The position numbers and the translations under genes were made by a program. Under the pieces are notes generated by a model, which saw nothing but the letters and a program-made list of their open reading frames with translations, was not told where the DNA came from and made no database searches. A stretch of 64,000 bases of DNA from assembly GCF_004358445.1 (NCBI RefSeq), contig NZ_CP037951.1, forward strand, positions 1,661,501 to 1,725,500. Direction: 5' to 3'. Source of the stretch: Parashewanella tropica (GTDB lineage Bacteria > Pseudomonadota > Gammaproteobacteria > Enterobacterales > Shewanellaceae). How positions within the stretch are numbered: the stretch's first letter is position 1; every line of letters starts with the position of its first letter. This document shows positions 2,906 to 40,711 of this stretch, in pieces.

Positions 2906-3708
2906 GCTGAGTCTCCGGAAAATAAACTGGCTTTAGCTCGTTCTGCTGTGGCAGTTGGTCTTGTTCTTTTGGGCACAATTTGAGTATTGGCGTCAGGGAA
3001 ACGAGCTAAAAATGACTGGTAATTTTTTACCAATAGTTTGCGTAAATGGAATGGACCTTGTTCTAGGACATAACTGATGTAACGATTCGATGCTTGGGTT
3101 TCATTATCCTGATAAATATCGATGTAAACCCAATCACTTTGACTGTCGGTACCAATAAATACTGAAGTTGGCTGAATTTTAGTAATACTGTCAGGAACAC
3201 TAAATGCCATTACCTGAACCACGGTATCACCATCGGCACTGGGCAAATTTAGCGCTTCGGCAAGGGTTTCGGCATTGAGGGTATACTGGCTAATATCTGA
3301 GCCTTCGACAACGGGCAGGGCATTAAAAAATGGCTCTGGTACAGCATCTAAATCAGGCTGTTCACCACGAGAAAAACCATAACGCTTGAGGCAACGAGCT
3401 AAACCTGAACGTGATACATTCGGATTGATAAACTCTTGCGTGATTTTTAGAAGCTTATCCAATGAGAGTTTCAATTGAACTCTTAACCCAACCACCACAT
3501 ATTCTTCAACCGCTGATAGCGTGGTATTGAGATGATGTGGAGTATGATCCCCATCTTCAATATCTTTACGGTTTCGCCATTTCCTAACTGTGGCTTGGCT
3601 GATGTTGAGGATTTTAGAAAGCTCAGACACAGTAAGCTCTGAGGTCTGAATAAATTTCCTCATTTCAGGCGTAGTGGTCGCATTTCCGTGTCTTTGACGA
3701 GCTGTCAT
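2902..3708 (-). CDS. pfaR: PfaR, transcriptional regulator of the pfa operon
   Basis: A 268-residue protein directly upstream of pfaA, with a 4-bp stop/start overlap. Residues about 20-48 form a helix-turn-helix (SELTVSELSKILNISQATVR) that closely resembles the N-terminal HTH of IS481-type transposases. There is no DDE catalytic core, and the C-terminal half is unrelated and unassigned. In Shewanella and Photobacterium the gene in this position is the activator PfaR. The overlap with pfaA implies that regulator and synthase are made from one message, and so possibly autoregulation. The transposase-like HTH is most simply read as domestication. Confidence 0.85.
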   Translation of the reverse strand: MTARQRHGNATTTPEMRKFIQTSELTVSELSKILNISQATVRKWRNRKDIEDGDHTPHHLNTTLSAVEEYVVVGLRVQLKLSLDKLLKITQEFINPNVSRSGLARCLKRYGFSRGEQPDLDAVPEPFFNALPVVEGSDISQYTLNAETLAEALNLPSADGDTVVQVMAFSVPDSITKIQPTSVFIGTDSQSDWVYIDIYQDNETQASNRYISYVLEQGPFHLRKLLVKNYQSFLARFPDANTQIVPKRTRPTATAERAKASLFSGDSA

Positions 3709-3824
3709 CTAACTTTAGCCTTCAGTAATAAACTCTTGGGACAATTTAGTTAATAAGCGATAAAATGGGCTTATTAAATTTAGGAAGATGAAGATTACCT
3801 TAGCTTTGGCTTTGATACAATCAT

Positions 3825-4610
3825 GTGGGACAAAAAATGCGAAAGGATATAATCACCAACAAAAATTCTGAAAAGATTGAATTACATTGTTTAAAAAAGA
3901 CTCAATTATCCGATTTGCAACATAAGTGCCTCATTGAGTTGCTCACTGATGAGGAAATAGATCGTGTTAATGGATTTCGTACTCAAGAAATGCAACAGCA
4001 TGCCTTATGGGTGAGGGCATCTTTGAGAGAGCTATTATCAGAATACAGTCAACGACATCAAATTGCTGAAGTTAAGCCTGTACAGTGGCAATTTGAAAAA
4101 CTCAAGTACGGCAAACCATACATTATCAACCAGCCGAGTCGTTCACAAAATATTGAATTTAACCTCAGCCATAGTGGTGACTGGTTATTAATCGGTATTA
4201 CTCATAGAAAAGCAGATAACCAATCATTTTATTTTGGTGTCGATATAGAACGAGAAAGGTCTAACACTAATGTCATGACAATTGCCAAACGCTATTTTTC
4301 AGAACTTGAACTAGAACAGCTTGAAGCGTTAGAAACTGAACAAGAAAAACGGCAGCGATTTTTTGATTTATGGACCTGTAAAGAGTCTTTTATAAAAGCA
4401 ACGGGTAAAGGTTTAGCGACAGATTTGAAAAGCTTTAGTTTTGACTTTTCCAAAGTAATCAAGGGTGAATCCTTTTTTGAAGTTCCCCTCATGCTGCGAA
4501 AAAATGTTACTGGGAAATGTGGCACTTGGTTTTCTGCTTTTGGTAGGCTCGACGATGTTTATCGGTTTGCCTTGAGTGTTAAACCCAATTTTGATTCTTG
4601 TTCATCTTAA
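3825..4610 (+). CDS. pfaE: PfaE, Sfp-type 4'-phosphopantetheinyl transferase
   Basis: Transfers phosphopantetheine from CoA to the ACP repeats of the PUFA synthase. The Sfp-type signatures are present: FNLSHSGDW (about 112-120), the metal-binding GVDIERE (Asp140, Glu142) and WTCKESFIKATGKG (Trp183 to Gly196). The length of about 260 residues fits group II enzymes. It is divergent from pfaR-pfaA, the layout seen in Shewanella PUFA clusters. The longest frame starts at a GTG at 3825, but an in-frame ATG at 3837 is an equally good start. Its stop overlaps the stop of the convergent giant gene by a few bases, so no terminator can fit between them. Confidence 0.92.
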   Translation: MGQKMRKDIITNKNSEKIELHCLKKTQLSDLQHKCLIELLTDEEIDRVNGFRTQEMQQHALWVRASLRELLSEYSQRHQIAEVKPVQWQFEKLKYGKPYIINQPSRSQNIEFNLSHSGDWLLIGITHRKADNQSFYFGVDIERERSNTNVMTIAKRYFSELELEQLEALETEQEKRQRFFDLWTCKESFIKATGKGLATDLKSFSFDFSKVIKGESFFEVPLMLRKNVTGKCGTWFSAFGRLDDVYRFALSVKPNFDSCSS

Positions 4611-7600
4611 TCTTGTAACAGAGCCTCCCAGTCTATTGTATTTAAAAATTCATCAAACCCTTTTTCAATGGTCTCACTATGAATCACTGAAAAATTGGAA
4701 TGATTTAGTGCTTTTTTAAGTCTTTCAGGGTTTAATTTATAACTTAGAAACTTCCCTTGAATGCCACTGTAACGACTCATTCGAGGTTCAACTCTTTTGG
4801 TTAGGGACATCAGCCAGTCTCGGTCAGGTCTCATTGAGTAATGGCCAGCGGAGAGGTGAGTCAAACTTGTTTGGAAAAAAGCTCTAGACGGCACAGTAAT
4901 AACGCAGGCACCGTCTTCAGATATCACTTCTTCAGCAAGAAATTGAAAATAGCTTTTCTCGACTTGGTCGAATTTTTGGTAGAACCTACGAATATTCCAA
5001 AATCCAGCTTTTTCAGCGACTTTACCACTAAACAGAATACCGTGTGCATTTAGGTGTTTTTCAAAAATTTTATCAAGATCTCTTGTTCTATCCAGAGGCA
5101 GGCACAATACGGCTGGCTTTTTAGCTATTTCTCTAAATGTATGTAAATACGGAGCACGCTTTTGAGCCCAGCGTTGCAAATCAGGCTTTATGGCGTTGCC
5201 TTTTCTCCATGACCAGCTAGATGTAACGTGTGTTGTGACAAGCTTTTGTTTTATGGTATGGGTTGTCCCTCCGAGTTCTTTTTCTGGAGGAGTACAGTCC
5301 AATTCTTGGATAACCTTATCAGACCAACTGAGATGTGATGTGATTTTTAGATAGTACTGCTCTAAAATTTTTTCTGCTCTTTGCTTCTGTGAAGAGTACT
5401 GCGCTATGTGTTCTAAAATTGGCAAATATTGTCCGATAGATAATTGTTCAGTTTCGAAAAGCTCTATGCTCTCTTCACAGAAGGTGAGGTAGCACTGGTC
5501 ATTTATCAATTTATTTCTATATAGCTCATGTATAGCTAAAAAATATTGATAGATACAGTAATTGAGTCTATTTAATGAATCCTGACCGTATAACGGTTTT
5601 TGGGTAGCATATTCTTTTGCATGTCGATACCAGAGTTTAAATAGCTCTGGTAGCACAGCTATGATTAAGCCATCATTCTTTAAGAGGAGTTTTTGTTTGT
5701 TAACATCATCTAAATATGTAACTAAGTCATGGAATTCATGTACAACCCTTTTACTTTTTAGCGTTTTTATCAATGCTATAAAATAAAGTTGATCATCTGG
5801 TGTCGTTGCATCTATGTATGCATTTGCGAGTAGTTCAAAATTGCGTAGTTGGCTTTTTTTTGGTGATTCTAAATCTTCTAATGTTAATATTTTATGCAGC
5901 GGGGCTGACTCCAGCGTTTCAGCAAGCTCAGTTTCTTCAAAATCTTCACTGTCTTCTGCTTCAAACATTGCATTTGTAAGTGGGTCATTATTTTGAGGGG
6001 AGAAAGGGTTAAGATATGCACTTTCTCCATCGACCGTTGGAGAAGCTGACTCCATATCTAGATAATCAGGGGTATAAGTCTTCCCAGTGTTATGCTTTCC
6101 ACCTAAGTCAACTTTACGCCATAAACCTTCTTCTTCAACTCCAACCTCAATATATGAATGGACGTCATTAGAAATAATTCGGGATCTTATCCCAAGGTAT
6201 TGGCAAATTAGGTGGAACCCCAAAGCGCGATGTAGGCAAACCCCTTGTTGTGATTTAATAGATTGAATGATCACTTCAAAGTTACCATTTATGGAACCTT
6301 CAATATCCTTGTTTGCATCAAAGCCTCTAAAAAATAGTATCAAATGTCTAAGCTGATCTTCAGGAGTCGGCATGGATTTAATGCCCTTTAAATGCTTTAT
6401 AACACTATTACTTTGATCTTCGGTATTAAACAGCTCAGCATCTAAGGTGTGACTGATTTGTTGGTGACAAGGGGATTGGAGTAAAGATACTTGATCTCTT
6501 AATCGAAGAAAGTGAGTTTTTTGCCAAGGTTCAAATATTGTGAAATCAATCGTTACGTCTTGAGTCTCTGGTGTGGCTAGAGGAGCAAGTTTAACTAACC
6601 ATTGTCGGGTCAATTTATGCCTTGCAGTGATCAGTTTAACTGGATGTCTTGCATCTATCGAAATGAGTAAGGATTCTGTACTAAAAGTCGGCAAAATTGA
6701 CCAATTTGAAGTGGACAATTTAAATGTTACACAACCTAGAACTTCACCAGGGATAAGTCTTTGACAATGCCTTAGGGCGAATGGTTGGCCTAGTTTTGTG
6801 AGAATCAATCCTGAATTGTTTTCATTAGATATATATGTTCCGATCGTATCTGAAAGATGTATGTTGTGTTCATCTGCTACGGTTTCTGTCAACTGTAACT
6901 GGCCATCGATAACTGCGAGCTCTTGTACTCTTGAGCGATAAAAAGCGTGAGGAATATCTGAGTCTTTGAAATACAAAGTTACATCTTTAGGAGGAGCCGA
7001 TTTAATCTTTCCATCTATTTTTGTTTTGGAAGTAACTGTCTTACAAATAACCCCTTCGTCTCTATGATATATCATTTTGGGGCCCTTTTGTGAGCGTCTA
7101 GATGGAGCTGATTGAGCTGTAACCAAAGACTTGAAATCCCGTTTTCGCTCATGCAGTTTAGCACTTGCTTCTGCATCGATTTCTAATTCTTTTTGGACAT
7201 TACTTTCAATTGCGTCGCTATCCCAATCAATAGATTGCATCGATAAGCCAAATTTATTATGTAGTATATTTGGCCAATTCTCTTTAGGTTGCAAAATCAA
7301 CAGGGAAGTCAGCTGAATGAGGTCTTTTAAGGTAACTGGGATTGGAGATCTACTTTTTTGTAATTCTTGATTTAATACTGAAAATCTTTGTATTAGCCAA
7401 GTTACAGCTTCTTCATTTCCAGGAAATTTATTCAGTAATATCTGTTCTAAATCGGAGTGGGTAAGAGGTGTGAGTATGATATTTACACATCGGTTTTTAA
7501 AGGCGGGTGATGCAGCTTCTCTGCCCTCAAAACTTGAAGGGTTTATTGTTGCAAATAGTAAAAAATTCGGGTTCGATGGGCAGGTAAGTACTTCATTAAA

Positions 7601-10600
7601 TAGGCCTTCAATTAGATCACTTGGCAATAAATTCAGTTCACTAATAACCAATTTTTTCCCAAGCTTCATTGCATCTTGTATTTCACGTAAAGATTCTTCC
7701 CAACTGTCAGGGTTGGCATTGATATGGGTATACTTTTGTGATTCAGGAACATCCTTTTCCCAGAGCTCTAATACTGCTTCTAGAATCGTATCTTTTCCCC
7801 AACCGGATGGGCCTTCAACTAGCAAGGCTCTTTTATCTAAGCCATTGGATGCACTTCTTTTGTTTAAGAATGACCAGTAATATTGGACTAATGCGCATAC
7901 TGCTTCATTTCTTAAATCCAGACTTGGATTTTGTTCTCTGAGCTCTAAAAGAAATACGTTAAAGTTATGCTTTTTTATATCTAGAACTGAATTTTCACAC
8001 GGGAATTCTTGTTGTAATTTAGCTTTTAATTTAAGGAGTAAACCTTTATTTTTTAAAGGAACGCCTGGCTCTATCGCTTCCTCGAATGCGTCAAAGATAA
8101 TGGCATGAACCTGTGTCATATCGGCAGGTGGCGTGACAAGCAAATTTTGTGTGCAAGATATTCTTGTTAATACTTCGTGTAAGTCTCTAGGTGTTAACCC
8201 TTCTGGGATAAGAGAGGCAATCTCTTCAAATGTCTGTATAACTAGATGGCAAGCCTGATTGCGAAATGTTAACGGCCATGTTGATGGAAGTGATGGCTTT
8301 ACGATAAGTTTACCTTGTGTCTCACGAGACAGTGGTCGACAGTGTACCGTTAGCATACAGCTACTGATATCAGGATCCATCTTTCTGCCGGCATAAAAAT
8401 CAGGATTCCCGGTTAAGATAACTCTGTGCTTGCTAGTAAGAGGATATATTCTCCCTTGATAGCATAATTGTTTTGGTTCTCTACATAATCCTGCAAGTGT
8501 GGCGATAACACCTTCTTTAGCGATATTAGCTTCATCGAGTACCAGCAGTTGTGGGTTTCTATCTTTCGCCCACTTGAGAATTGGACCGTCTTCAAATTCA
8601 GTTCGTGAATCACCGCTAGCATCCGTTATCAGCTTTTGTTCACCAAAGAGTGAGCAAGTTGTTGTTTCTGGTCCAAGACTTATCACTAATGGTGTATCAA
8701 AATGCTTAAATTGTGGATCTTGTTTTGAAAGTTCATTGGAAACTGCTTTAGCTAAGTGGCTTTTTCCTGCTCCTGCTTCTCCTTGCAGAAATACGATAGG
8801 GTGATGTCGAACTCTGTCACACATCCTGAGGAGACGCCTATTTTCTCTAATGTGGCAGTTTTGTGTTCCAAATAGTAAATCTTCGGCTAAGTCCACAAAA
8901 TCAGTGTCTAAAAGCTCCTTGTCAAAGTAGCGATATAGATGTGCCGTTATGTTTTCTAGGAATAGAGCTTGTTCCTGTTCCCTGTCTGAAGACGTGTGAT
9001 ACTCAGTGATTAGCGGTTGAATTGATGCGGCTAATTCCTGTGTCTGTCTCGAAATACAGCCAGCTTTGTTTCGCTTGGAGCTCGCAACCAATAGAGCGTC
9101 ACGTAATTGTGAAAATAATAGTGAATTTCGTTCAATGACATCAATTGGAGTGAGCTCCTGGTCCAGAGTTCGTAGTTGCTCTGCTTGAGAAGGTAAGGCT
9201 ATAGAATGTAAACACCTAAGCAAATTATGTATGTCTTCTTGAGTCGGAGTGAATTTTCGTCCACGAATTGTTTTTTCAAAATATGTTAAAGGGCAATGCC
9301 TAACCAATAACCAGAAATTTTTGGTTAATGTTTCTCTTGTGAGAGGTTGATTTTTACCCATCCATTGTCGTAGTTGATTAACATCAATTTCTTCTAGGCT
9401 TGTTGGCTCGTAAGTAAACTCTAAATGTGTTTTTAAATAGTTATAAACTTTTTCGTCACCTCTGTAAGCTCTGGTTATCAATGTATTTAATGCTCTTTTA
9501 TAATGATAATTTGTGGGTTGGTAACTGCCATCCTGACGAGTTTCGATTTTAAGTTGCTCATCAAATAGTACATTAAAGTCTGCTTCTTCCCATGGAATTG
9601 TTGCGGGGTAAGTATGATGATGACTTGGTGGTAATGCGCTGAGTAGATCATAAATATATTTAAATTTACCCAAGCGTCGATGGGTATGAGTTCTGGATTG
9701 AAGTGCAAACCTTTCTCTTAAGTGCTCTGTTCGTTGGTTGTGGTATTGCAGGAGTTTAGGTAGCTTTTGTTGTTGCTTTTCGTTTAACACTAAATGAATT
9801 GAAACTTGTGCTCTTGGAAGCTCGTGTTTTTTTCCGTGCAAAAATAGGTAGGGTGGATTGGCGAAAAGAGTTTCAATTTGCGCAAGGATTTTTGAATTTC
9901 TTTCAACACCCGATAGCGTTATTTTTTTTCCATTAACAAGTGCATCAAATAGTTGTGTTTGTGTTTGTTGAAATTGAAATCTATCTTGGCTTTGTAGTTT
10001 AAATTCTTGCCACATACTCTCCCAGTCTTCTTTAGCCGTAACTTGATATACCATGGATTCTCTATTCTGAAATGCTAAGGAATCGGCTGCATTTGAAAAT
10101 ACATGGCAACTAACATTAAGTTCTTGATCTGGGTTCGGAGTAATATCTTGTGTCCCCCAAACAGTCACTCTAGGTATTGACTTATACCTTTCTAATCGCC
10201 TGAGAAATCGTAACCACTGATGTTGCGAAAGATCACTTGTGATACACAACTCAGCTTTTCCAAAAATGAGTTCATTGAATGTATCATGGTATACAGGTGT
10301 TCCGTTTTGAATTTTAAAGTCAGAGAGTATTGCATCAAGATTTGAACCGTTTAAATAAACAACACCAGAACATACTAATGGTTCAGCAAAAGGGACGATT
10401 TTTTTCCTAAAGGGCAGTTTTGCAAGTATCCGCTGTTTTCTAGTTAGTGGTTGTGTAGGAGTAACCTGAAGAGGCTTATTTAACAATTGACTTTTTAGAC
10501 TTTCAATTTCATCATCGCTGGTGTCTTCCCTGATGATTTCCATTTCGTCAGGTAAAGAAAATACTACTCCATTGGCTGAAAACTGGCGTGTGATTAGACA

Positions 10601-11797
10601 TTCTCGTAAATCATAAACAAACTTTTTTGAGTTCCAAGGTGCATCTCTAAAAATAAGGATACAGCCTTCATCAGATTCAGTTAAATAACCTCTTTTGAAA
10701 AACCATTGACCGTTATTGTCGATACTGATTTCTCCAAAAAGAAGTGCTTTCCAGTTATCATTTGAAAAATCAATCGTAATTCTTCTTCTCGGTATACCTC
10801 TGCCGTCTTCGAATACAATATCTTGGTCAGTTGTTGGAATATGAGATTCGAGTACATCAAAACCTTGTTCTCTTGGGATGAGAAGGTCAGGGGAGTCAAG
10901 CATGACAAAGGCTTTACTTTCGTCGTGATAAGCCTTTTGTAAGTGTGGCTTGTCATCAACAAAAATAAAGTCATCGAATTCAGATTCATATTCAGATTCA
11001 GAGTCACCTGATAAAGAGCTACTTGTTGGCTGTGATGGGACGGACCAATTTTGAAAAAGAGTAACGTCTTCTGCTGGTGGTATTTCATTCAAATAATCTA
11101 AATCATGATAGGATTCAAATTGAGTTAATCGGCGCCAACAGTCTTGATTAGGCTGAGATTCTCCAGACTTCAGCATTTGAGGGTTTATTAATACAACACG
11201 AGAGATATTTTTACCTAGGGACTTACCATTTAATGAAGGAGGCGTATCTAACAGATCATTCAAACTAGCCACTTGAGAGGGCGACATACTGGTTAGGTCT
11301 AAAATCAAAGTGAGAGGTTGATTAGAATATAATCTGCCTTCCTGTTCTTTAATTCCACCCTTTGAATCAATTATAACTGACGATTTTAAGCCGTCTTCTT
11401 CAAGGTGTAATGGGGAAAGGATATTGATAATAGGTGAACTTGGATTACTACAACGGCAATGGTCAATCACTTTTAACTTATCTTGTTCAGACTTGATATT
11501 AAAAATAGATGAATGTGCTGTTGCTGAAGTGCTTGTTTGTTGAACTTCTACTGTTTGAGCAGCAGCTTGTTGTGCTAAAGGTTGATCGGTTTCAGCTACT
11601 TTAGCAGCAGTATGGAGCAACATGCTTTTGTTAGTTTTATTTACAGTAGTAGTGTACACCCTATTAAAGTTGCCTAGGGGGGTTGTTACTGTACCCGTTG
11701 GTTGTATTGAGTCATAAGGGCGGTCTTGAGTTCCTTTTAGCTCAAGTTGTGGGACCGTCCCTGTTGTTACGCTGCCGCTTGACAATTTAACTACCAA
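4607..11797 (-). CDS. Giant 2396-residue protein with two AAA_5-type ATPase modules and a transglutaminase-like segment
   Basis: I do not recognise this protein as a whole. Residues 1 to about 330 are low-complexity and acidic, with Ser/Thr-rich stretches. AAA module 1 has Walker A GEAGAGKS (about residue 1004), Walker B LLVLDEAN (about 1083) and a sensor-like ILTGNPD. AAA module 2 has GPSGWGKD (about 1328), KLVISELNLL (about 1377) and TINPSSFEGREAASPAFKNR, the pattern of dynein/midasin-related AAA_5 domains. The expected acid of Walker B in module 2 is the E of ISELN. Farther on, GVCLHRALGF (Cys about 1852), DVHSYIEV (His about 1877) and VDLGG (Asp about 1893) are spaced like the Cys-His-Asp triad of transglutaminase-like domains. 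There is no signal peptide. It stands alone between pfaE and the heme locus. A mechanochemical remodelling ATPase with a papain-fold hydrolase or peptide-binding module is an inference. Confidence 0.7.
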   Translation of the reverse strand: MVVKLSSGSVTTGTVPQLELKGTQDRPYDSIQPTGTVTTPLGNFNRVYTTTVNKTNKSMLLHTAAKVAETDQPLAQQAAAQTVEVQQTSTSATAHSSIFNIKSEQDKLKVIDHCRCSNPSSPIINILSPLHLEEDGLKSSVIIDSKGGIKEQEGRLYSNQPLTLILDLTSMSPSQVASLNDLLDTPPSLNGKSLGKNISRVVLINPQMLKSGESQPNQDCWRRLTQFESYHDLDYLNEIPPAEDVTLFQNWSVPSQPTSSSLSGDSESEYESEFDDFIFVDDKPHLQKAYHDESKAFVMLDSPDLLIPREQGFDVLESHIPTTDQDIVFEDGRGIPRRRITIDFSNDNWKALLFGEISIDNNGQWFFKRGYLTESDEGCILIFRDAPWNSKKFVYDLRECLITRQFSANGVVFSLPDEMEIIREDTSDDEIESLKSQLLNKPLQVTPTQPLTRKQRILAKLPFRKKIVPFAEPLVCSGVVYLNGSNLDAILSDFKIQNGTPVYHDTFNELIFGKAELCITSDLSQHQWLRFLRRLERYKSIPRVTVWGTQDITPNPDQELNVSCHVFSNAADSLAFQNRESMVYQVTAKEDWESMWQEFKLQSQDRFQFQQTQTQLFDALVNGKKITLSGVERNSKILAQIETLFANPPYLFLHGKKHELPRAQVSIHLVLNEKQQQKLPKLLQYHNQRTEHLRERFALQSRTHTHRRLGKFKYIYDLLSALPPSHHHTYPATIPWEEADFNVLFDEQLKIETRQDGSYQPTNYHYKRALNTLITRAYRGDEKVYNYLKTHLEFTYEPTSLEEIDVNQLRQWMGKNQPLTRETLTKNFWLLVRHCPLTYFEKTIRGRKFTPTQEDIHNLLRCLHSIALPSQAEQLRTLDQELTPIDVIERNSLLFSQLRDALLVASSKRNKAGCISRQTQELAASIQPLITEYHTSSDREQEQALFLENITAHLYRYFDKELLDTDFVDLAEDLLFGTQNCHIRENRRLLRMCDRVRHHPIVFLQGEAGAGKSHLAKAVSNELSKQDPQFKHFDTPLVISLGPETTTCSLFGEQKLITDASGDSRTEFEDGPILKWAKDRNPQLLVLDEANIAKEGVIATLAGLCREPKQLCYQGRIYPLTSKHRVILTGNPDFYAGRKMDPDISSCMLTVHCRPLSRETQGKLIVKPSLPSTWPLTFRNQACHLVIQTFEEIASLIPEGLTPRDLHEVLTRISCTQNLLVTPPADMTQVHAIIFDAFEEAIEPGVPLKNKGLLLKLKAKLQQEFPCENSVLDIKKHNFNVFLLELREQNPSLDLRNEAVCALVQYYWSFLNKRSASNGLDKRALLVEGPSGWGKDTILEAVLELWEKDVPESQKYTHINANPDSWEESLREIQDAMKLGKKLVISELNLLPSDLIEGLFNEVLTCPSNPNFLLFATINPSSFEGREAASPAFKNRCVNIILTPLTHSDLEQILLNKFPGNEEAVTWLIQRFSVLNQELQKSRSPIPVTLKDLIQLTSLLILQPKENWPNILHNKFGLSMQSIDWDSDAIESNVQKELEIDAEASAKLHERKRDFKSLVTAQSAPSRRSQKGPKMIYHRDEGVICKTVTSKTKIDGKIKSAPPKDVTLYFKDSDIPHAFYRSRVQELAVIDGQLQLTETVADEHNIHLSDTIGTYISNENNSGLILTKLGQPFALRHCQRLIPGEVLGCVTFKLSTSNWSILPTFSTESLLISIDARHPVKLITARHKLTRQWLVKLAPLATPETQDVTIDFTIFEPWQKTHFLRLRDQVSLLQSPCHQQISHTLDAELFNTEDQSNSVIKHLKGIKSMPTPEDQLRHLILFFRGFDANKDIEGSINGNFEVIIQSIKSQQGVCLHRALGFHLICQYLGIRSRIISNDVHSYIEVGVEEEGLWRKVDLGGKHNTGKTYTPDYLDMESASPTVDGESAYLNPFSPQNNDPLTNAMFEAEDSEDFEETELAETLESAPLHKILTLEDLESPKKSQLRNFELLANAYIDATTPDDQLYFIALIKTLKSKRVVHEFHDLVTYLDDVNKQKLLLKNDGLIIAVLPELFKLWYRHAKEYATQKPLYGQDSLNRLNYCIYQYFLAIHELYRNKLINDQCYLTFCEESIELFETEQLSIGQYLPILEHIAQYSSQKQRAEKILEQYYLKITSHLSWSDKVIQELDCTPPEKELGGTTHTIKQKLVTTHVTSSWSWRKGNAIKPDLQRWAQKRAPYLHTFREIAKKPAVLCLPLDRTRDLDKIFEKHLNAHGILFSGKVAEKAGFWNIRRFYQKFDQVEKSYFQFLAEEVISEDGACVITVPSRAFFQTSLTHLSAGHYSMRPDRDWLMSLTKRVEPRMSRYSGIQGKFLSYKLNPERLKKALNHSNFSVIHSETIEKGFDEFLNTIDWEALLQD

Positions 11798-12210: not shown

Positions 12211-14397
12211 TTAGAACTTATAGCTTAAGTTTACGTTAAAGTTTCTACTCGGAGAGGTATTGAAAGACAAATCAGAGTTAGCCTTATGACCTTTCACTCT
12301 GCTGTATTTTACGTATTCTTTGTCTAGCAAGTTTTTCGCATTTACTTTAATAGCTAGTGCTTCAGTAATCTTATAGCTTGCTTGCAAATCAAACGTGGCA
12401 TAACCAGCCGTTTTAGCCGTTTCTTTTCTGACCTTTGTCATACTTTTGGCCCACTTCATAACAAGTGTTGAACTGAAATCACCAAACTCATAGTTAACCC
12501 CGGCGTTTCCGCTTAGTGGGTTGATAGAATCGATATACTCTTTGGTATTGTCGTCTTTTCCATCCATATAAGCAGCATTAGCAAAGATGTTTAAATCGTC
12601 GTTTAAGTAGTAAGTTAAGCCAACTTCTGCGCCTTTAATGGTTACTGAGTCAATGTTAATGTATTTATTAACACGAATGTCTCTAGTAACACCCCTTACT
12701 GTGACTTTTTCAATGCGATCTAAGCGAGAGGCGATGAAGTCATCATATTTGTTGTAGTAAGCGGCAGCTTTAAATGCTAAATCGCCTGCAGAGCCTTTGA
12801 TACCAATTTCGTAAGTGTCACTTTTTTCTGGGTTAAGGTCTTCACTAGGTTCAACCTTGTAACCAAAGCGGCTATTGTCATGCTCAATATAAGCTAGATC
12901 GTAGGCTGGAACTTTAAAGCCTTGTCCATATTGTGCATATACTGAGATATCATCAGTTATTTTGTATAACGAGCCGAAGTTAAGTGATAAGTTGTTATCT
13001 TTAATGCTCTTAAATGCTGTTTTTTTATCAGCTTTTAAAGCACCGTTCGGATCCATATCATAATGGTCGAAACGTAAGCTTGGTGTCAAAATCAGCTTTT
13101 CGTCAAGTAATCGAATCTCATTGTTTACAAATAGCCCTAAACGAGTGGTATCAGTCTTAGGGAACTTGTTTTCTGTTGTATCTGTATTTGGTTTTGGTTT
13201 ACCGCTACGGACTTGATACTCACGATAATCACGTACCGTTCGAGTGCTTTCGGTGGTTTCAAAGTCTATGCCGTAACCCAGCGTGCTCCAATTTGCTAAT
13301 GCTAAGTTTGCATGAGCCAGTAATCCAAAGGTTTGTTGCTCATAGTTACCATAGCGCCACATATCACGGATTTCATCGACCTTAATTGGACCGAGAGAAG
13401 CTTTAATGTCTAGCTTGCCGTAATCAGTGTCTTTTTGTTTGGTATTGTGTGAATACAAATTAACACTTAGGTGATCGTAGAAAGCGGTCGCATGAGACAT
13501 AAAGCGTAATTGGAACGCCTGTGTGCTTTGATCTGTTTTCCCGTTTTCATCAACAATTTTATAACCAAGTTTTGCAAGGGTACGGAATGGACCTAACAAG
13601 CCATCAGCAGTCTGATCTTTGACATCTTGATCCCAGATATCAGCAGTGAAAGTTAACGAATTATGGTGGTTAAAGTTATATTTTGCTTTATAGAAAATGC
13701 TTTGAGATTTAATGTCTAAAGGCTTTTTCGTCTCGTCATAGTTTTGCGACTCTTCACCATCACGTTTTACCACATTGATGAAGTGTTGGAAGTCACCAGC
13801 TTGATGAGCTAATACTACTGATGCATTTTTTTGTTTACTGTTACTTGTGTAACCAACACTTGCTTTGCCGCCAAAAGTTTCCCCTTCGCTAACAAAATCA
13901 CTTGCGTCTTTAGTGGTGAAAACCACTACGCCACCTAAGGCATCAGAGCCGTATAAAGAAGAGTATGAGCCTTTTGCAACCTCAACTTGCTTAATGGTGT
14001 CAGTATCAATAAATCCACGACCAACAATATCGTTAAGACCGTCTGCGCCATAACCTTCGTTCATACGCATGCCGTCTTTGATCATAAGAACACGATCGCC
14101 ACCCATACCTCGAACGATAATGTTTTGAGCTTGTCCCTCACTGCCAGTTACGGTAATGCTTGGATCATATTGGAACAACTGACTCATATCAGTGATCACT
14201 TGTTTTTCAATATCATCTGCAGTAACAACAGAAATGCTACCACTCACATCTTTAAGTGCCTTTTCGGTACGAGTACCACTGACAACCATTACTTCTAGTT
14301 CTTCAGCCGCTTTTGTTTCAGCTTCTTGTGCTTGTGCTGGCACGAATAAAGCAGTTGCAATGGCAATTGCTGTAAGTGTTGGTGCTGTTTTAAGCAT
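12211..14397 (-). CDS. TonB-dependent outer-membrane heme/hemoglobin receptor (HmuR/HutA type)
   Basis: A 728-residue outer-membrane receptor. It has a signal peptide (residues 1 to about 23, ending in AQAQ), a TonB-box-like segment around LEVMVVSG, a plug domain with IIVRGMGGDRVLMIKDG, and a C-terminal beta-barrel ending in LSYKF with a terminal Phe. The loop between GFKVPAYD (FRAP-box position) and DLNPEKSD (NPDL-box position) carries a His (YIEHDNS), as in heme and hemoglobin receptors. It is divergent from an ExbB/DUF2149/CobN operon, and a perfect Fur box lies between them, so iron starvation should induce both. Heme is the favoured ligand; other porphyrins or corrinoids are possible given the CobN-like partner. 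Confidence 0.85.
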   Translation of the reverse strand: MLKTAPTLTAIAIATALFVPAQAQEAETKAAEELEVMVVSGTRTEKALKDVSGSISVVTADDIEKQVITDMSQLFQYDPSITVTGSEGQAQNIIVRGMGGDRVLMIKDGMRMNEGYGADGLNDIVGRGFIDTDTIKQVEVAKGSYSSLYGSDALGGVVVFTTKDASDFVSEGETFGGKASVGYTSNSKQKNASVVLAHQAGDFQHFINVVKRDGEESQNYDETKKPLDIKSQSIFYKAKYNFNHHNSLTFTADIWDQDVKDQTADGLLGPFRTLAKLGYKIVDENGKTDQSTQAFQLRFMSHATAFYDHLSVNLYSHNTKQKDTDYGKLDIKASLGPIKVDEIRDMWRYGNYEQQTFGLLAHANLALANWSTLGYGIDFETTESTRTVRDYREYQVRSGKPKPNTDTTENKFPKTDTTRLGLFVNNEIRLLDEKLILTPSLRFDHYDMDPNGALKADKKTAFKSIKDNNLSLNFGSLYKITDDISVYAQYGQGFKVPAYDLAYIEHDNSRFGYKVEPSEDLNPEKSDTYEIGIKGSAGDLAFKAAAYYNKYDDFIASRLDRIEKVTVRGVTRDIRVNKYINIDSVTIKGAEVGLTYYLNDDLNIFANAAYMDGKDDNTKEYIDSINPLSGNAGVNYEFGDFSSTLVMKWAKSMTKVRKETAKTAGYATFDLQASYKITEALAIKVNAKNLLDKEYVKYSRVKGHKANSDLSFNTSPSRNFNVNLSYKF

Positions 14398-14472
14398 GTT
14401 AAAAATCCTTCAATGAGGGTTAATAATGTCAATGGCGGGTATAATACTTAAAAAAACGTTAAGATCAACACA

Positions 14473-14491
14473 AATGATAACTATTATCATT
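14473..14491. promoter_or_regulatory. Fur box controlling the divergent heme locus
   Basis: AATGATAA-CTA-TTATCATT is a perfect 8-bp inverted repeat matching the 19-bp Fur consensus. It sits between the receptor start (14397) and the ExbB-like gene start (14551), so one site can repress both promoters under iron-replete conditions. Confidence 0.88.
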
Positions 14492-14550
14492 AAAATTATT
14501 GATTAAGTGGTCGGATTACGTTAAATTTGCGCCACCAAAATGTAGTAGAG

Positions 14551-15090
14551 ATGGAAAACGTGAATATCCAATCAATCGAAAGCCTAATGGCGAATGTGTC
14601 AGAAATCCTTATGGCACCAGTTTTAATCGCCATTTTTGTCCTGTTTATTTATGCCTTTTATGCACTTGGGCATTTTATTTCTCAGTATTTAACGCGTAAG
14701 CAAGGAATGACGGATTACCTTTCTCAATTGAGAAATAAAGAAGGTAAAAAGGTAAAAGGATATACCATTCACAATTATTACATTCAAAATCCAACTGCAA
14801 GTGAAGATGAACTAGAAGTGGTTGCACTTAAAAAGCTTGAAACTCTTCGTATCGTGACTCGTATTGCACCGATGCTTGGTCTTATCGCCACGATGATCCC
14901 AATGGGGCCTGCTTTGAAAGCGCTATCTGACGGAAATATCCAAGGTATTAGTGAAAACCTAATCGTTGCTTTTGCTGCGGTAATTTGGGGCTTGGTGATT
15001 TCAACTCTGACCTTTTGGCCTGCATCAGTAAAGAAACGTTGGTTTGCAGATGAGTTGATTAATATTCGAAAGCTTAAAGGCGATGCCTAA
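14551..15090 (+). CDS. MotA/TolQ/ExbB-family proton-channel protein
   Basis: An inner-membrane protein of about 179 residues with an N-terminal transmembrane helix (near LMAPVLIAIFVLFIYAFYAL), a cytoplasmic loop, and two further helices around IAPMLGLIATMIPMGPAL and IVAFAAVIWGLVISTLTFW, the usual MotA/TolQ/ExbB layout. The frame can extend to a TTG at 14527, but the ATG at 14551, preceded by an AG-rich stretch, gives the normal N-terminus. It is the first gene of a tight operon: the next start overlaps its stop by one base. By analogy with ExbB/TolQ it should form a proton-driven motor with the downstream DUF2149 protein. The partners suggest it energises heme handling rather than general TonB function, and that is an inference. 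Confidence 0.85.
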   Translation: MENVNIQSIESLMANVSEILMAPVLIAIFVLFIYAFYALGHFISQYLTRKQGMTDYLSQLRNKEGKKVKGYTIHNYYIQNPTASEDELEVVALKKLETLRIVTRIAPMLGLIATMIPMGPALKALSDGNIQGISENLIVAFAAVIWGLVISTLTFWPASVKKRWFADELINIRKLKGDA

Positions 15091-15440
15091 TGAAGTTCTT
15101 AAACGAAGATGAAGAGCTAAACCCAATCGTAAGTGCGGTGAACTTGATCGACGTATTTTTGGTGATCATCGCTGCGCTTCTTATTGCGATTGCGCAAAAC
15201 CCTTTGAACGTGTTCTCTGAAGACAGTGTCACTGTGGTTAAAAATGCTGGCAAGCCAAATATGGAAGTGATTGTTAAAGAAGGAAAAGAGATTAAGCAAT
15301 ATAAATCAACAGGTGCAATCGGTACAGGTGAGGGCGCTCGCGCTGGTGTTGCTTACAAGATGGCTGATGGCAGTTTTGTTTATGTTCCAGAAGGACAAGA
15401 TGGAGCAAAAGCTAAATCTCAGGAGACAAAATTAAAATGA
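15090..15440 (+). CDS. DUF2149 protein, ExbD-like partner of the proton channel
   Basis: A 116-residue protein with one N-terminal transmembrane helix (about 17-38, LIDVFLVIIAALLIAIAQ) and a small periplasmic domain with a Gly-rich segment (GAIGTGEGARAGVAYK). I recognise this as DUF2149, which co-occurs with MotA/TolQ/ExbB proteins and CobN-like genes. The topology is that of ExbD/TolR. Its start overlaps the upstream stop (TAATG), and its stop overlaps the CobN-like start (ATGA), so all three are probably made in fixed ratio. Confidence 0.82.
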   Translation: MKFLNEDEELNPIVSAVNLIDVFLVIIAALLIAIAQNPLNVFSEDSVTVVKNAGKPNMEVIVKEGKEIKQYKSTGAIGTGEGARAGVAYKMADGSFVYVPEGQDGAKAKSQETKLK

Positions 15441-18400
15441 GAATAGCAACAGCACTTTTCACAGTGCTTTTTTCTATGTTGAGTATGATGACTTCTCCCC
15501 TTGCTGAAGCATCTACGTCAAAACCTAAAGTTAAACTTTTTATGTCAGGTCATGGCTCAAAAGCCAAGGCTGATTTATTGATTGAGCTTGCAAAAGATCA
15601 ACCTTTTGAGCTGGAAGAATTTAAAACTAAAGGCAAAAGCGAAGAGCAAATTGCTCAGTCTTGGAAAGAAAGTGATTTGATCTTACTTGATGGGATCAAC
15701 CCTGCATTATCCAGCTTTTTATTTAAAAAGTACCAAGGTCATTTAAAGCAGTTCCCTAAAGTAGCTGTTTTGTCATTAGGCGATTTACATAATGCCAAGA
15801 TGAACCAAGGTCTTTCTAAAAAAGATAAAAAACAGCTTGGTGATTATTACAAAAATGCAGGTCGTGATAACTATCGTAACTTTATGCTTTATCTGAGTAA
15901 TAAAGTATTTAAGTTAAGTGAGGAAAAAGCTGGAAAGGTTAGAGCTGTTCCTAACGTTGGTTTATACCACCCTGATTTTCCAAAAATCATGACTAGCGAC
16001 AAAAACGAATTTATCCAGTGGTTAAATCCTGCAAAAGGTCAAAGCAAAATTGCGATTGCGATTCATCGTTCTCGCATTGATTACGAGCAACAACATGTGG
16101 TTGATGCTCTAATCAAACGTCTTGAAGCTAAAGGTGCTAAAGCGTTTGCTTTTTTCTTTGAAGGAAATGATGAAAGCTTAACTTACCCTGAACTACTTAC
16201 GAATGAAAACGGTGCTTGGATCGATTTAATGATCAATCATCGTTCACTTCACTATGTGGCTAAGCGTCGTGCCGAATTTGAACAAATTGGTGTACCAGTT
16301 TTACATGCATTGAACTATGGCGAAGGTGATGAAGCGCAATATAAAGAAGACCATGCTGGTGTTTCTGCATCGTTAACGCCTTTCTTCTTAGTTATGCCAG
16401 AAGATACGGGTAGTACAGATCCAATCGTGATTACCGCAACGGAAAATGGCAAAAAAGTCATTATGGAGCATCAACTTGATGCTTTAGTTGAGCGCGCCAT
16501 CAATCATGCCAAATTGGCTCACCTTGCCAACAAAGATAAAAAAGTGGCGACCTTTATTTGGAACTATCCTCCGGGAGAGAAGAATATCGGTGCGGCTTTC
16601 TTAGATGTGCCGGGTTCAATCGAGCAAATTGCCAAAGGCATGAAAGCTAAAGGCTATAACGTTGATGTTAAAGATAGCAAATGGCTGATTGAAAATGCAG
16701 GTCTGTTGCTTCGTCCTTATTATCGTCAAGAAGATGCAAGCCAGCTAATCGAGAAGGGATTAGCAGATTACCTACCAATCGAGAAATATCTTGAATGGTT
16801 TAATGCACTTCCTGAAGATGTGCGCCAGCCGATTGTCGACCGCTGGGGTAAAGTAGAAGAGAACGAAATGCTCACTGACCACAACGGCAGCAAGGCATTT
16901 GTTATTCCAAGAATGAATCTGGGTAACTTGATTGTTCTTCCGCAAGGTGTACGCGGTAGTGATGCCAAAGAACATGCAAACCTATATCACGATACTAAGA
17001 ACCCAATTAATCACAGTTATTTAGCGATTTACCTCTACACTCGTTTGCAATTTGGTGCTAACGCTTATATCCATTTAGGTACTCACGGTTCACAAGAGTG
17101 GTTAACGGGTAAAGAGCGTGGCTTATCTGTGTTTGATGCGCCATCTCTTGCTGTTGGAAACTTGCCAGTATTCTACCCATACATTATCGACAATGTTGGT
17201 GAAGCGATGCAGGCAAAACGTCGTGGTCGTGCGACCATGATCAGTCACTTAACGCCGGGTTTTGCTAAAGCAGGTTTATACACTGAAATGGCAAAACTGA
17301 ATGAGCTTCTTGGTAACTATGTGTTGCTAACAGAAGGTCAAACCAAAGAAAACACTCAAGATGCCATCATTAAGCAAGCTGTTGAACTAAACATGCTTAA
17401 TGATCTTGAGTTAACTGAGCAAGACCTGAAGACCAATTTCGACACACACGTAGCGAAAATTCAAGATCACCTCACTCAGCTTTCTGAAATGAGCCAGCCA
17501 TTGGGTGTTCATATCTTTGGTTTATTACCAGAAGACGCTCATCTTTATTCAACCATGCTACAAATGATTGGTGATGAGTTTGTCGTTGAAGCAACAGCTT
17601 ATGAAAAAGAGCACGGTTTAGCTATTCCTGAAACTGAAAGCAAAGATGAAAGGGAAGTGGTTAAGCTTGAAGCACTCGGCGGCTTCCAGCTGCTTAAAAA
17701 GCACTTATCTGGTGAAAAGCTAGCAGATATCTCCGAAGATTCTGAACTGACAAAAGGTCTAGAAAAAGCAACCAAGTATTGGGATAACTTCCACAAAATT
17801 GCTGAAGTGAAAAATCTACTGAAAGCGTTAGATGCAGATTACATTCCTGTTAGCTATGGTAATGATCCAATTCGTAACCCAGAAGTAGCGCCAACAGGTC
17901 GTAACCTCATTGGTTTTAATCCTGCCAAAGTGCCTTCAAAAGAAGCGTATGAAGCTGGCGTGAAACTGATGGAACAAACCATTAAAGATTATCACGCTAA
18001 GCATGGTCGTTATCCTAAGAAGCTAGCTTTTTCTTTGTGGTCACTAGAAACCATGCGCCATCACGGTGCATTAGAAGCGCAAATTCTACATGCGTTAGGT
18101 TTAAAGCCTAAGTGGGATCGTCAAGGAAACATCAGTGGCACTGAAGTCATCGAATACAAAGACTTAGGTCGCCCACGTATTGACGTGGTAATTTCAGCGA
18201 CAGGCTTGTATCGTGATGCGTTTCCTAACGTCATGCTGTGGTTGGCTGAAGCCATTGATAAAGTGGCGAAGATGAAGGAAGAAAATAACTTCGTTTATCG
18301 TCATGCTAATGCGCTTAAGCAAGAGCTTTTGAAGTCTGGAAAAACTGAAGAAGACGCTGATTATCTATCGTCAGTTCGTATTTTCTCTAATGAGACGGGT

Positions 18401-19366
18401 AACTATGGTACAGGTTTAGCGGGCGCAAGCTTGGCATCTGACACATGGGAAGACGACAGCAAACTGGCTGATTTATACCTTCGTCGAATGGGCTTTGCCT
18501 TTGGTAAAGACGAAAAACGTTGGAGTGAAAATGTTGGTGGTGATGAGCTGTATGCCAAAGTACTTTCTGGTACTGATGCGGCTATTTTCTCACGTTCGAC
18601 AAACCTATATGCCTTAATGACCAATGACGATCCATTCCAATACTTTGGTGGTTTAGGTTTAGCGGTTCGTCATCTTGATGGCAAAACACCTGAAATGTAT
18701 GTGTCTAACCTTCGTAAAAAAGGGAAAGAAAAAGCACAAACTATGCAGGAGTTTATGAACCAAGAAATGCGCAGCCGTTATTTCCACCCTCGTTGGATCA
18801 AAGCGATGCAAGATTCTGGTTACGCAGGTGCTACCGCTATTCTGGATCGCATGAACAACATGTGGGGTTGGGAAGTGATGACACCAGAAGCGGTACGTGA
18901 TGATCACTGGCAAGAATTCTTCGAAGTTTACGTTGATGATAAATATCAAATGGAAATGAAGAAGTTCTTTGAAGAGCACAACGCGGAAGCATTAGCGCAA
19001 ATCATTGAGCGTATGCTGGAAGCAACACGTAAAGGCTACTGGACGCCAGATGCCGAAACTTTGAAGAAGATGCTTGAAACCTATACCGAACTTGCTAATA
19101 AGCATGACGTAGTTACGGACAACGAGAAGTTTACCGAATACGTGCAAGAGCAAAATGCAGGTTTTGGTTTAGCACCACTGGCTCCGGGACAAGCTGCTCC
19201 AAATGCAAATGCGGCTTCTCAAGCAGCAACTCAACAAGTGACAGGTCAAAAACTTGAGCAAGTTGAAAAAGCGGAAGAAGTTGAATCAAACGATAAGTGG
19301 TTGTTCTTAGCTATCTTCTTGATCCTTGCCGCAGGTATGATTAGACAGCGATTTGAACGCATGTAA
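15437..19366 (+). CDS. CobN-like chelatase, exported and membrane-anchored (HmuS-type candidate heme dechelatase)
   Basis: A 1309-residue protein of the CobN / magnesium chelatase H family. Unlike cytoplasmic CobN it begins with a signal peptide (residues 1 to about 25, ending in PLAEAS). It ends with an Ala/Gln-rich linker and a single helix (WLFLAIFLILAAGMI) before a basic tail. The catalytic body should therefore be periplasmic and tethered to the inner membrane. Family-typical segments include IHLGTHGSQEWLTGKE and RPRIDVVISATGLYRD. No CobS/CobT or BchI/BchD ATPase partner is present; the partners are a proton channel, DUF2149 and a TonB heme receptor behind one Fur box. In Bacteroidetes hmu operons the equivalent HmuS removes iron from heme, so heme dechelation is the best guess. 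AGGAGA about 10 bases upstream is the ribosome-binding site. Confidence 0.85.
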   Translation: MRIATALFTVLFSMLSMMTSPLAEASTSKPKVKLFMSGHGSKAKADLLIELAKDQPFELEEFKTKGKSEEQIAQSWKESDLILLDGINPALSSFLFKKYQGHLKQFPKVAVLSLGDLHNAKMNQGLSKKDKKQLGDYYKNAGRDNYRNFMLYLSNKVFKLSEEKAGKVRAVPNVGLYHPDFPKIMTSDKNEFIQWLNPAKGQSKIAIAIHRSRIDYEQQHVVDALIKRLEAKGAKAFAFFFEGNDESLTYPELLTNENGAWIDLMINHRSLHYVAKRRAEFEQIGVPVLHALNYGEGDEAQYKEDHAGVSASLTPFFLVMPEDTGSTDPIVITATENGKKVIMEHQLDALVERAINHAKLAHLANKDKKVATFIWNYPPGEKNIGAAFLDVPGSIEQIAKGMKAKGYNVDVKDSKWLIENAGLLLRPYYRQEDASQLIEKGLADYLPIEKYLEWFNALPEDVRQPIVDRWGKVEENEMLTDHNGSKAFVIPRMNLGNLIVLPQGVRGSDAKEHANLYHDTKNPINHSYLAIYLYTRLQFGANAYIHLGTHGSQEWLTGKERGLSVFDAPSLAVGNLPVFYPYIIDNVGEAMQAKRRGRATMISHLTPGFAKAGLYTEMAKLNELLGNYVLLTEGQTKENTQDAIIKQAVELNMLNDLELTEQDLKTNFDTHVAKIQDHLTQLSEMSQPLGVHIFGLLPEDAHLYSTMLQMIGDEFVVEATAYEKEHGLAIPETESKDEREVVKLEALGGFQLLKKHLSGEKLADISEDSELTKGLEKATKYWDNFHKIAEVKNLLKALDADYIPVSYGNDPIRNPEVAPTGRNLIGFNPAKVPSKEAYEAGVKLMEQTIKDYHAKHGRYPKKLAFSLWSLETMRHHGALEAQILHALGLKPKWDRQGNISGTEVIEYKDLGRPRIDVVISATGLYRDAFPNVMLWLAEAIDKVAKMKEENNFVYRHANALKQELLKSGKTEEDADYLSSVRIFSNETGNYGTGLAGASLASDTWEDDSKLADLYLRRMGFAFGKDEKRWSENVGGDELYAKVLSGTDAAIFSRSTNLYALMTNDDPFQYFGGLGLAVRHLDGKTPEMYVSNLRKKGKEKAQTMQEFMNQEMRSRYFHPRWIKAMQDSGYAGATAILDRMNNMWGWEVMTPEAVRDDHWQEFFEVYVDDKYQMEMKKFFEEHNAEALAQIIERMLEATRKGYWTPDAETLKKMLETYTELANKHDVVTDNEKFTEYVQEQNAGFGLAPLAPGQAAPNANAASQAATQQVTGQKLEQVEKAEEVESNDKWLFLAIFLILAAGMIRQRFERM

Positions 19367-40552: not shown

Positions 40553-40576
40553 CTATTATTAAAATTGAAGCATAAA

Positions 40577-40599
40577 AAAACCCGCATTTTGCGGGTTTT
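40577..40599 (-). terminator. trp operon attenuator
   Basis: On the minus strand AAAACCCGC-AAAAT-GCGGGTTTT followed by more T, between the trpL leader peptide and trpE. This is the conditional terminator of classical trp attenuation. Confidence 0.88.
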
Positions 40600-40648
40600 A
40601 TGTGTCTTATTCTGTTTGCTTTATTTATTTTGCATGCACAGCATCACA

Positions 40649-40711
40649 CTACCCGCGATTGAGGAAGTGCCACCACCAGTTGATGATTTGAAGAGCTGCA
40701 TTAAAATTCAT
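40649..40711 (-). CDS. trpL: TrpL, trp operon leader peptide with three consecutive Trp codons
   Basis: A 20-codon ORF, too short for ordinary gene calling: ATG at 40711, TAG at 40649-40651, with TGG TGG TGG at 40670-40678 inside the run NWWWH. When charged tRNA-Trp is scarce, ribosomes stall on the Trp codons and the downstream attenuator is not formed. The following 45 bases and the attenuator hairpin at 40577-40599 complete the arrangement. A TTGACA hexamer at 40775-40780 (minus strand) could be its -35 box, but I could not place a convincing -10 at normal spacing. Confidence 0.88.
   Translation of the reverse strand: MNFNAALQIINWWWHFLNRG

What the first reader, a model, noticed from the sequence alone, without database searches (positions are those of the whole stretch)
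12211..19366. Fur-controlled heme locus in a gammaproteobacterium with a Bacteroidetes-like hmu gene set and an exported CobN-like dechelatase candidate
Seen: a heme-type TonB receptor diverges from ExbB-like, DUF2149 and CobN-like genes that overlap by 1 and 4 bases, with a perfect Fur box between. The CobN-like protein has a signal peptide and a C-terminal anchor and no ATPase partner. Known: in Bacteroidetes hmu operons, MotA/TolQ/ExbB and DUF2149 proteins accompany HmuS, a CobN-like protein that removes iron from heme. Inference: this is a periplasmic, proton-motive-force-powered heme dechelatase, rather than a cobalt chelatase.
Basis: partly seen in the sequence, partly recalled or inferred. 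Interest (0 to 1): 0.7.

Follow-up and report, generated by a model that had tools for sequence, protein, structure and literature searches.

The report
Marine bacterial heme-iron stripping gene cassette
A marine bacterium carries a four-gene set, probably switched on by iron shortage, that probably takes up heme and processes it outside the inner membrane with an exported relative of the enzymes that insert metals into vitamin B12 and chlorophyll; the set recurs in many marine bacteria and looks like a cousin, not a copy, of the recently described gut-bacterial heme de-chelatase HmuS.

Summary
The genome has one CobN/BchH-family protein and no CobJ/CbiH over cut-off. Of 47 loci, 39 keep ExbB-DUF2149-CobN and 33 of these the divergent receptor; 23 of the 33 have a Fur-like site within 3 mismatches. 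Six relatives also encode a HmuY-family protein, two in the window's own clade. Cobalamin riboswitches mark a separate B12-type branch (11 of 14 loci) and are absent here. A heme-iron role is well supported, a cobalt chelatase is not. But the protein is not a HmuS: His1209 and Glu1212 are replaced, no Met-rich stretch is seen, and an AU test rejects one HmuS-plus-heme-cassette clade. I read it as a second lineage of exported CobN-like heme processors, probably de-chelating heme, with the ExbB/DUF2149 pair serving the CobN-like protein rather than TonB. De-chelation and proton-motive-force coupling remain inferred. A juxtamembrane motif (VxGQxL-like) marks the lineage. New variant of a known kind.

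The parts
12211..14397 (-). TonB-dependent heme/hemoglobin-type outer-membrane receptor (728 aa)
   Evidence: TIGR01785/01786 over cut-off; best PDB match PhuR
14473..14491 (.). Fur-like box AATGATAACTATTATCATT between the divergent genes
   Evidence: 1 mismatch; similar sites in most relatives
14551..15090 (+). ExbB/MotA/TolQ-like proton-channel protein (HmuU-like); the ORF listing gives the TTG at 14527
15090..15440 (+). DUF2149 protein (HmuV-like), one N-terminal helix with Asp21, invariant in 26 rows
15437..19366 (+). exported, membrane-anchored CobN-like class I chelatase-fold protein (1309 aa)
15437..15511 (+). signal-like N-terminus (residues 1-25, ...SPLAEA)
   Evidence: and inspection
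17084..17086 (+). His550, aligned with catalytic HmuS His538 (GTHG motif)
18626..18631 (+). Asp1064-Asp1065 (NDDPFQYFGG); Asp1065 aligns with HmuS His1209
19238..19255 (+). juxtamembrane motif VTGQKL ([VI]xG[QYFML]x[LM])
19298..19342 (+). C-terminal hydrophobic anchor followed by RQRFER

Best explanation
A Fur-repressed heme-iron acquisition cassette. Under iron limitation the receptor imports heme (or heme from hemoproteins) into the periplasm using the cell's ordinary TonB system. There an exported, C-terminally anchored CobN-like protein binds the heme and most likely takes the iron out (de-chelation), using the superfamily's His550 across the cleft from Asp1064/Asp1065 instead of the His538/His1209 pair of HmuS. 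The ExbB-like and DUF2149 proteins form a small proton-driven stator that works on the CobN-like protein through its C-terminal helix and the VxGQxL-like motif; Fe(II) would enter by FeoB. Shown here: gene content, conservation as a unit, Fur-like sites, heme-type receptor, HmuY in relatives, separate lineage, export signals by hydropathy. Inferred: Fur control itself, heme as substrate of the CobN-like protein, de-chelation, site geometry, stator coupling, FeoB step.
For: Receptor passes both curated heme cut-offs. Fur-like site within 3 mismatches in 23 of 33 divergent loci, window included. HmuY (PF14064) over cut-off in six of six candidate ORFs between receptor and ExbB of relatives, two of them (L032, L035) in the window's own CobN clade. 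Among 369 gammaproteobacterial genomes 9 have high-scoring DUF2149 (98 bits or more) and 13 HmuY, 4 both (0.32 expected, p 1e-4, score limit chosen afterwards and no correction for kinship). No cobalamin riboswitch at the window or in the 15 loci (L101 and L056 are one locus). Genome: FeoB over cut-off, no HutZ match, no heme-ABC ATPase over cut-off. ExbB-like and CobN-like ORFs accompany DUF2149 in 34 of 35 loci examined, while receptor type varies. L107 and L186 carry an ordinary TonB-ExbB-ExbD set beside it, and the window's genome has three ExbD/TolR-family genes elsewhere, one of them in a Tol-Pal locus by sight.
Against: HmuS His1209 is Asp and Glu1212 is Gln, as in classical CobN; no Met-rich stretch. 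HmuS and the heme-cassette group are not one clade (AU p 9e-9, group named after seeing the tree). Four of 33 divergent loci have Fur-like sites no closer than 5-6 mismatches (L036, L039, L054, L058), and the Nitrosomonas loci L040/L045 show none at the cassette promoter. A Fur-like site and a receptor family do not prove the substrate of the CobN-like protein. A FecCD-type permease with an ATPase (229 bits, heme cut-off 261) exists, so import of intact heme is not excluded. NCBIfam equivalog NF004644 calls it CobN (1304 vs 1248 bits). L129, L130 (class A) and L120 have cobalamin riboswitches. The predicted model has pLDDT under 50 around His550. No activity data.
Confidence: 0.5

Rival explanations
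1. Same heme cassette, but the CobN-like protein is a periplasmic heme-binding and hand-over machine (driven by ExbB/DUF2149) that passes intact heme on; no de-chelation.
For: The HmuS-type axial His1209 is missing; a FecCD-type permease/ATPase pair of unknown substrate is in the genome; heme receptor and Fur-like site fit equally.
Against: No heme-ABC ATPase over cut-off and no HutZ match (other heme-degrading families were not searched); His550 and cleft motifs are kept.
Confidence: 0.25
2. A cobalt/cobalamin enzyme: the protein inserts or removes cobalt, perhaps with the CobS/CobT-like pair elsewhere in the genome.
For: NCBIfam names it CobN; Asp-Asp motif as in classical CobN; CobS/CobT-like genes exist; two class A loci (L129, L130) and L120 carry cobalamin riboswitches.
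Against: Outside the classical CobN clade, 99 SH-aLRT for the exported group; C-terminal anchor, absent from both classical rows tested; no CobJ/CbiH over cut-off (the one cobalamin ring family searched); no cobalamin riboswitch at the window; Fur-like site and heme receptor; the CobS/CobT-like pair lies 1.06 Mb away in another context.
Confidence: 0.08
3. The ExbB/DUF2149 pair only energises the outer-membrane receptor (as drawn for HmuU/HmuV in the HmuS paper) and the CobN-like protein works unpowered.
For: Published scheme for HmuU/HmuV (PMC12583661 Fig. 1 legend); purified HmuS works with NADH and no partner, 1-2 turnovers.
Against: The pair stays with the CobN-like gene across heme-type, CirA-like and B12-like receptors; L107 and L186 have a separate TonB-ExbB-ExbD set in the same locus; other ExbD/TolR-family genes in the genome.
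Confidence: 0.2

Closest known systems
HmuS / hmuYRSTUV of Bacteroidota (B. thetaiotaomicron, PDB 9D26)
   Same: class I chelatase fold, N- and C-terminal hydrophobic segments, neighbours ExbB (HmuU) and DUF2149 (HmuV), heme uptake context; HmuY in six relatives of the window's cassette
   Different: 26% identity to the HmuS of B. finegoldii; Asp instead of His1209, Gln for Glu1212, no Met-rich stretch; separate clade; divergent four-gene layout without HmuY/HmuT here
BtuS-type CobN-like proteins with cobalamin riboswitch (third CobN type of Rodionov 2003, as cited in PMC6460266, passages)
   Same: mostly exported and anchored, with ExbB and DUF2149
   Different: about 1400-1570 aa, B12-like receptors in the two examined (under the strict cut-off) and riboswitches in 11 of 14 loci, mostly NNDxFDYLGG motif, no VxGQxL-like motif
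Pseudomonas aeruginosa PA1922-PA1925, Zur-controlled receptor/CobN-like operon (PMC4542158, passages)
   Same: receptor plus CobN-like plus ExbD-like genes under a metal regulator
   Different: zinc-controlled; its sequence was not fetched, so kinship to the window's lineage is untested
Classical cobaltochelatase CobN (7C6O, 9UK9) and ChlH (4ZHJ)
   Same: fold and cleft motifs; CobN shares the Asp-Asp motif
   Different: no C-terminal anchor in the classical rows tested, other clades; partners CobS/CobT or ChlI/ChlD (recalled)

Membership tests
HmuS heme de-chelatase | His1209 (LSLDHxxEFMGG) | tested here: not met
   Asp1065 in NDDPFQYFGG; His in 3 of 3 Bacteroidota plasmid HmuS and in 9D26
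HmuS heme de-chelatase | Met-rich insertion in domain IV | tested here: inconclusive
   region of 210 aa, at most 4 Met in 60 residues in the window protein; 18, 7 and 5 in the three HmuS rows, so my crude measure separates only P. nigrescens clearly
HmuS heme de-chelatase | catalytic His538 (GTHG) | tested here: met
   His550; shared by the whole superfamily
HmuS heme de-chelatase | site-1 heme ligands Met79 and His254 | tested here: inconclusive
   Ile and Ser at the aligned columns; Met79 is also absent from Aureibacter HmuS, His272 lies nearby, alignment is weak there
HmuS heme de-chelatase | falls in the HmuS clade | tested here: not met
   three HmuS rows form their own clade (100); joint clade rejected, p 9e-9 (group named after the tree)
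HmuS heme de-chelatase | HmuU (ExbB) and HmuV (DUF2149) partners | tested here: met
HmuS heme de-chelatase | converts heme to protoporphyrin IX | not testable with these tools
   needs a bench assay
Classical cobaltochelatase CobN | falls in the CobN clade | tested here: not met
   exported group of 42 rows apart from it, 99 SH-aLRT
Classical cobaltochelatase CobN | cobalamin ring-synthesis genes in the genome | tested here: not met
   CobJ/CbiH only 53 and 22 bits, cut-off 246; only this family searched
Classical cobaltochelatase CobN | CobS/CobT partners | tested here: inconclusive
   pair present but under cut-offs, 1.06 Mb away in another context
BtuS-type (B12) exported CobN-like | cobalamin riboswitch and B12-type receptor | tested here: not met
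Fur regulon | Fur-like box at the promoter, conserved in relatives | tested here: met
   (site pattern only; 23 of 33 loci)
Fur regulon | Fur binding and iron response | not testable with these tools
   needs EMSA and expression data

The most novel reading that the evidence does not exclude
The constant core (exported CobN-like protein + ExbB-like + DUF2149) is a general proton-driven metal-stripping machine of the Gram-negative periplasm, reused with interchangeable receptors and regulators for different metal complexes: heme with Fur (this window; HmuS separately), corrinoids with the B12 riboswitch, perhaps zinc with Zur (P. aeruginosa) and perhaps nickel (Runella, between hyp genes). It would replace the ATP-driven CobST/ChlID motor by a stator acting through the C-terminal helix and, in this lineage, the VxGQxL-like motif.
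Probability: 0.3. Interest if true: 0.85.

Novelty: new variant of a known kind. Interest (0 to 1): 0.62.

Why it matters
HmuS was reported in 2025 as the first direct demonstration of biological heme de-chelation, in an operon found primarily in Bacteroidota (PMC12583661). Here is a separate lineage of the same superfamily in marine Gammaproteobacteria, with Fur-like sites and in places a HmuY protein, lacking the axial His proposed for HmuS. It gives a natural test of which residues de-chelation needs, and a testable reason for the accompanying ExbB/DUF2149 genes. It also suggests that the database name (cobaltochelatase CobN) is wrong for this group.

Tried and rejected

Dropped rows: in the first tree I kept 59 of 80 rows, leaving out near-duplicates and L057, L126; L057 and L126 are also out of the motif count and the second tree. 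L101 is the same locus as L056, and L122 is identical in protein to L051. L135 and L112 were not searched for riboswitches.

Mended on re-check, odds of the best explanation unchanged: Met-rich insertion now inconclusive, receptor His no longer counted, one of three 'ExbD' genes is TolR-like, the P. hymeniacidonis copy is a mid-contig fragment. The heme-iron estimate in the report is put at 0.75 because of the receptor His.
Full report
1. What is there. Pfam and NCBIfam give a TonB-dependent receptor over both curated heme/hemoglobin cut-offs, a MotA/ExbB protein, DUF2149, and a full-length CobN-Mg_chel protein; NCBI's own model NF004644 would name the last 'cobaltochelatase subunit CobN' (1304 bits, cut-off 1248). 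Overlaps of 1 and 4 bases are exact. The Fur-like box at 14473-14491 has one mismatch to a recalled 19-mer consensus and is the only site in 64 kb with up to three. The genome (4.22 Mb, one contig) has one protein of the CobN/BchH family. The nearest relative is Shewanella sp. OPT22 (84%), in the same genus group as the window; Parashewanella hymeniacidonis holds only a mid-contig C-terminal fragment (residues 1121-1308), and two further genomes of the genus have no match. The window is probably from Parashewanella (inference).

2. It is a conserved unit. The search for related loci gave 46 loci. With the window, 39 of 47 hold ExbB, DUF2149 and a CobN-like ORF over 1000 bits, and 33 of these also hold the divergent receptor. 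The eight others are two contig-end pieces (L049, L055), the P. hymeniacidonis fragment (L060) and five distant relatives (L057, L059, L061-L063). Genera include Pseudoalteromonas, Colwellia, Thalassotalea, Bowmanella, Thiopseudomonas and Nitrosomonas (MAGs). None of six window neighbours matches anything in the other loci. Distribution is patchy: 8 of 60 nearby genomes have any match, classical and B12-type CobN included.

3. Regulation. In the 33 divergent loci the best match to the Fur 19-mer has at most 3 mismatches in 23 and at most 4 in 29; Markov-shuffled intergenic regions average 6.1-7.3 (lowest of 60 shuffles 2-5). Exceptions: L036 and L039 (6), L054 and L058 (5). A matrix built from 17 of those boxes, window excluded, scores the window at 25.0 bits against a shuffle maximum of 15.7, and scores above its shuffles in L101 (same locus as L056), L107, L124 and L125; L036, L039, L040, L102 and L104 stay under theirs, and the L045 sites are not at the cassette. 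Zur-like matches are no better than shuffles. Rfam finds no cobalamin riboswitch at the window, in eight loci or seven, but one or more in 11 of 14 B12-type loci (none in L108, L109, L133) and in L120, L129 and L130.

4. HmuY. Between the receptor and ExbB of six relatives (L032, L035, L056, L100, L102, L124) lies an ORF that looks by sight like a lipoprotein; all six pass the Pfam HmuY cut-off. L032 and L035 belong to the window's own 13-row CobN clade. The window's genome has no HmuY. Of 369 gammaproteobacterial genomes, 9 have high-scoring DUF2149 (98 bits or more) and 13 have HmuY; 4 have both, 0.32 expected (hypergeometric p 1e-4, score limit chosen afterwards, no correction for kinship); in three of the four HmuY lies in the same locus. 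A published survey found complete six-gene hmu operons only in Bacteroidetes (PMC10100974, passages).

5. The CobN-like protein. In the tree with real HmuS rows (48 rows, quick IQ-TREE, SH-aLRT) classical CobN stands apart from an exported group of 42 rows (99*); inside it are a B12-type branch (100*; it includes Marinobacter L188, annotated beside cobalamin salvage genes), HmuS (three rows, 100*), and a branch holding Runella, Trichlorobacter, L120 and class A (96*). The window sits in a 13-row clade (100*) within an 18-row clade (98*). Holding HmuS and those 18 rows together costs 99 log-likelihood units, AU p 9e-9 (the group was named after seeing the tree, and stems are long). Residues: His550 = HmuS His538; Asp1065 in place of His1209 and Gln for Glu1212, as in classical CobN; no Met-rich stretch, though my measure separates only one of three HmuS clearly; Met79 and His254 inconclusive (hallmarks from PMC12583661, Results parts 2-3 and Discussion). 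A His at the 1209 position does occur in six class A relatives (L105, L106, L127, L128, L138, L189); the receptors of L138 and L127 are best matched by CirA models and that of L105 by a siderophore model, all below curated cut-offs, and none of the five scanned has a Fur-like site above its shuffles. By a crude hydropathy limit, 53 of 59 rows that are neither B12-type nor classical have a C-terminal anchor, 13 of 15 B12-type, 0 of 2 classical. A motif [VI]xG[QYFML]x[LM] occurs in the tail of 61 of 62 class A/Ni-group rows (one of them, 10 residues from the end, is probably chance), and in 0 of 16 B12-type, 0 of 4 classical and 0 of 3 HmuS rows; shuffled tails 1-3%. Rows are related, so this is a family marker, not 61 independent events.

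6. The ExbB/DUF2149 pair. In 35 DUF2149 loci fetched also have ExbB-like and CobN-like ORFs (some cut by contig ends or frame breaks); the exception, L119, is under the DUF2149 cut-off. Receptors differ: heme-type over cut-off (window, L045, L107, L125), B12-like (L110, L118) and CirA-like (L104, L127, L138), these under their cut-offs. L107 and Trichlorobacter carry ordinary TonB-ExbB-ExbD genes in the same locus. The window's genome has three other ExbD/TolR-family genes, one in a Tol-Pal and two in TonB-like settings by sight. DUF2149 keeps an invariant Asp in its single helix (26 rows), as ExbD does (recalled). Hence I infer that the pair drives the CobN-like protein. The HmuS paper draws HmuU/HmuV as powering heme import, and the P. 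gingivalis paper leaves open that they affect HmuS activity (PMC13227078, passages). Recombinant HmuS made only 1-2 turnovers, compatible with a missing partner but not evidence for one.

7. Genome context. FeoB over cut-off; HutZ no match; best heme-ABC ATPase 229 bits, cut-off 261, beside a permease that looks FecCD-type by sight; CobJ/CbiH only 53 and 22 bits, cut-off 246. Against a clean picture: a CobS/CobT-like pair exists, below cut-offs, in a sulfoacetaldehyde-type locus by sight.

8. Structure. AlphaFold2 of residues 27-1226 (pLDDT 81, pTM 0.61, under 50 around His550) gives the class I chelatase fold and does not discriminate between HmuS, CobN and ChlH.

9. Verdict. Heme-iron cassette: about 0.75. 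De-chelation by the CobN-like protein: about 0.5. Stator coupling: about 0.5. HmuS membership: no. New variant of a known kind, with parallel or ancestral recruitment of exported CobN-like proteins to heme in two lineages.

Noticed in passing
L182 (Runella slithyformis pRUNSL01) 697-8731: TonB receptor, weakly NicO-like protein (under cut-off), ExbB, DUF2149 and CobN-like gene sit between hypF and hypC/D/E: a possible nickel version of the module.
   Followed up: partly
L183 1431-8584: The cassette lies on the 1.24-Mb second replicon of Pseudoalteromonas sp. NC201, in a stretch with no listed gene in PLSDB.
   Followed up: no
L035 7971-16538 (Catenovulum maritimum): Two tandem CobN-like genes of different subclades behind one ExbB/DUF2149 pair.
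   Followed up: no
L060 4362-4946 (Parashewanella hymeniacidonis): Only a C-terminal fragment of the CobN-like gene, in the middle of a contig: decay or assembly join.
   Followed up: no
window 4607-11797 (-): A 2396-aa protein with AAA_5/AAA_16 and weak midasin-lid matches, no match in the other loci compared; function unknown.
   Followed up: partly
G000:C1 2737354-2740076 (L193 3855-6577): CobS/CobT-like AAA plus VWA-type pair in a sulfoacetaldehyde-type locus (by sight) of a genome with no CobJ/CbiH over cut-off.
   Followed up: partly
window 40572-40684 (-): Trp operon leader just over its Rfam gathering score (41.1 vs 41).
   Followed up: no
L126 6777-6795: A site that looks Zur-like by sight just upstream of a receptor-ExbB-DUF2149-CobN operon of an aberrant CobN-like subfamily.
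   Followed up: no
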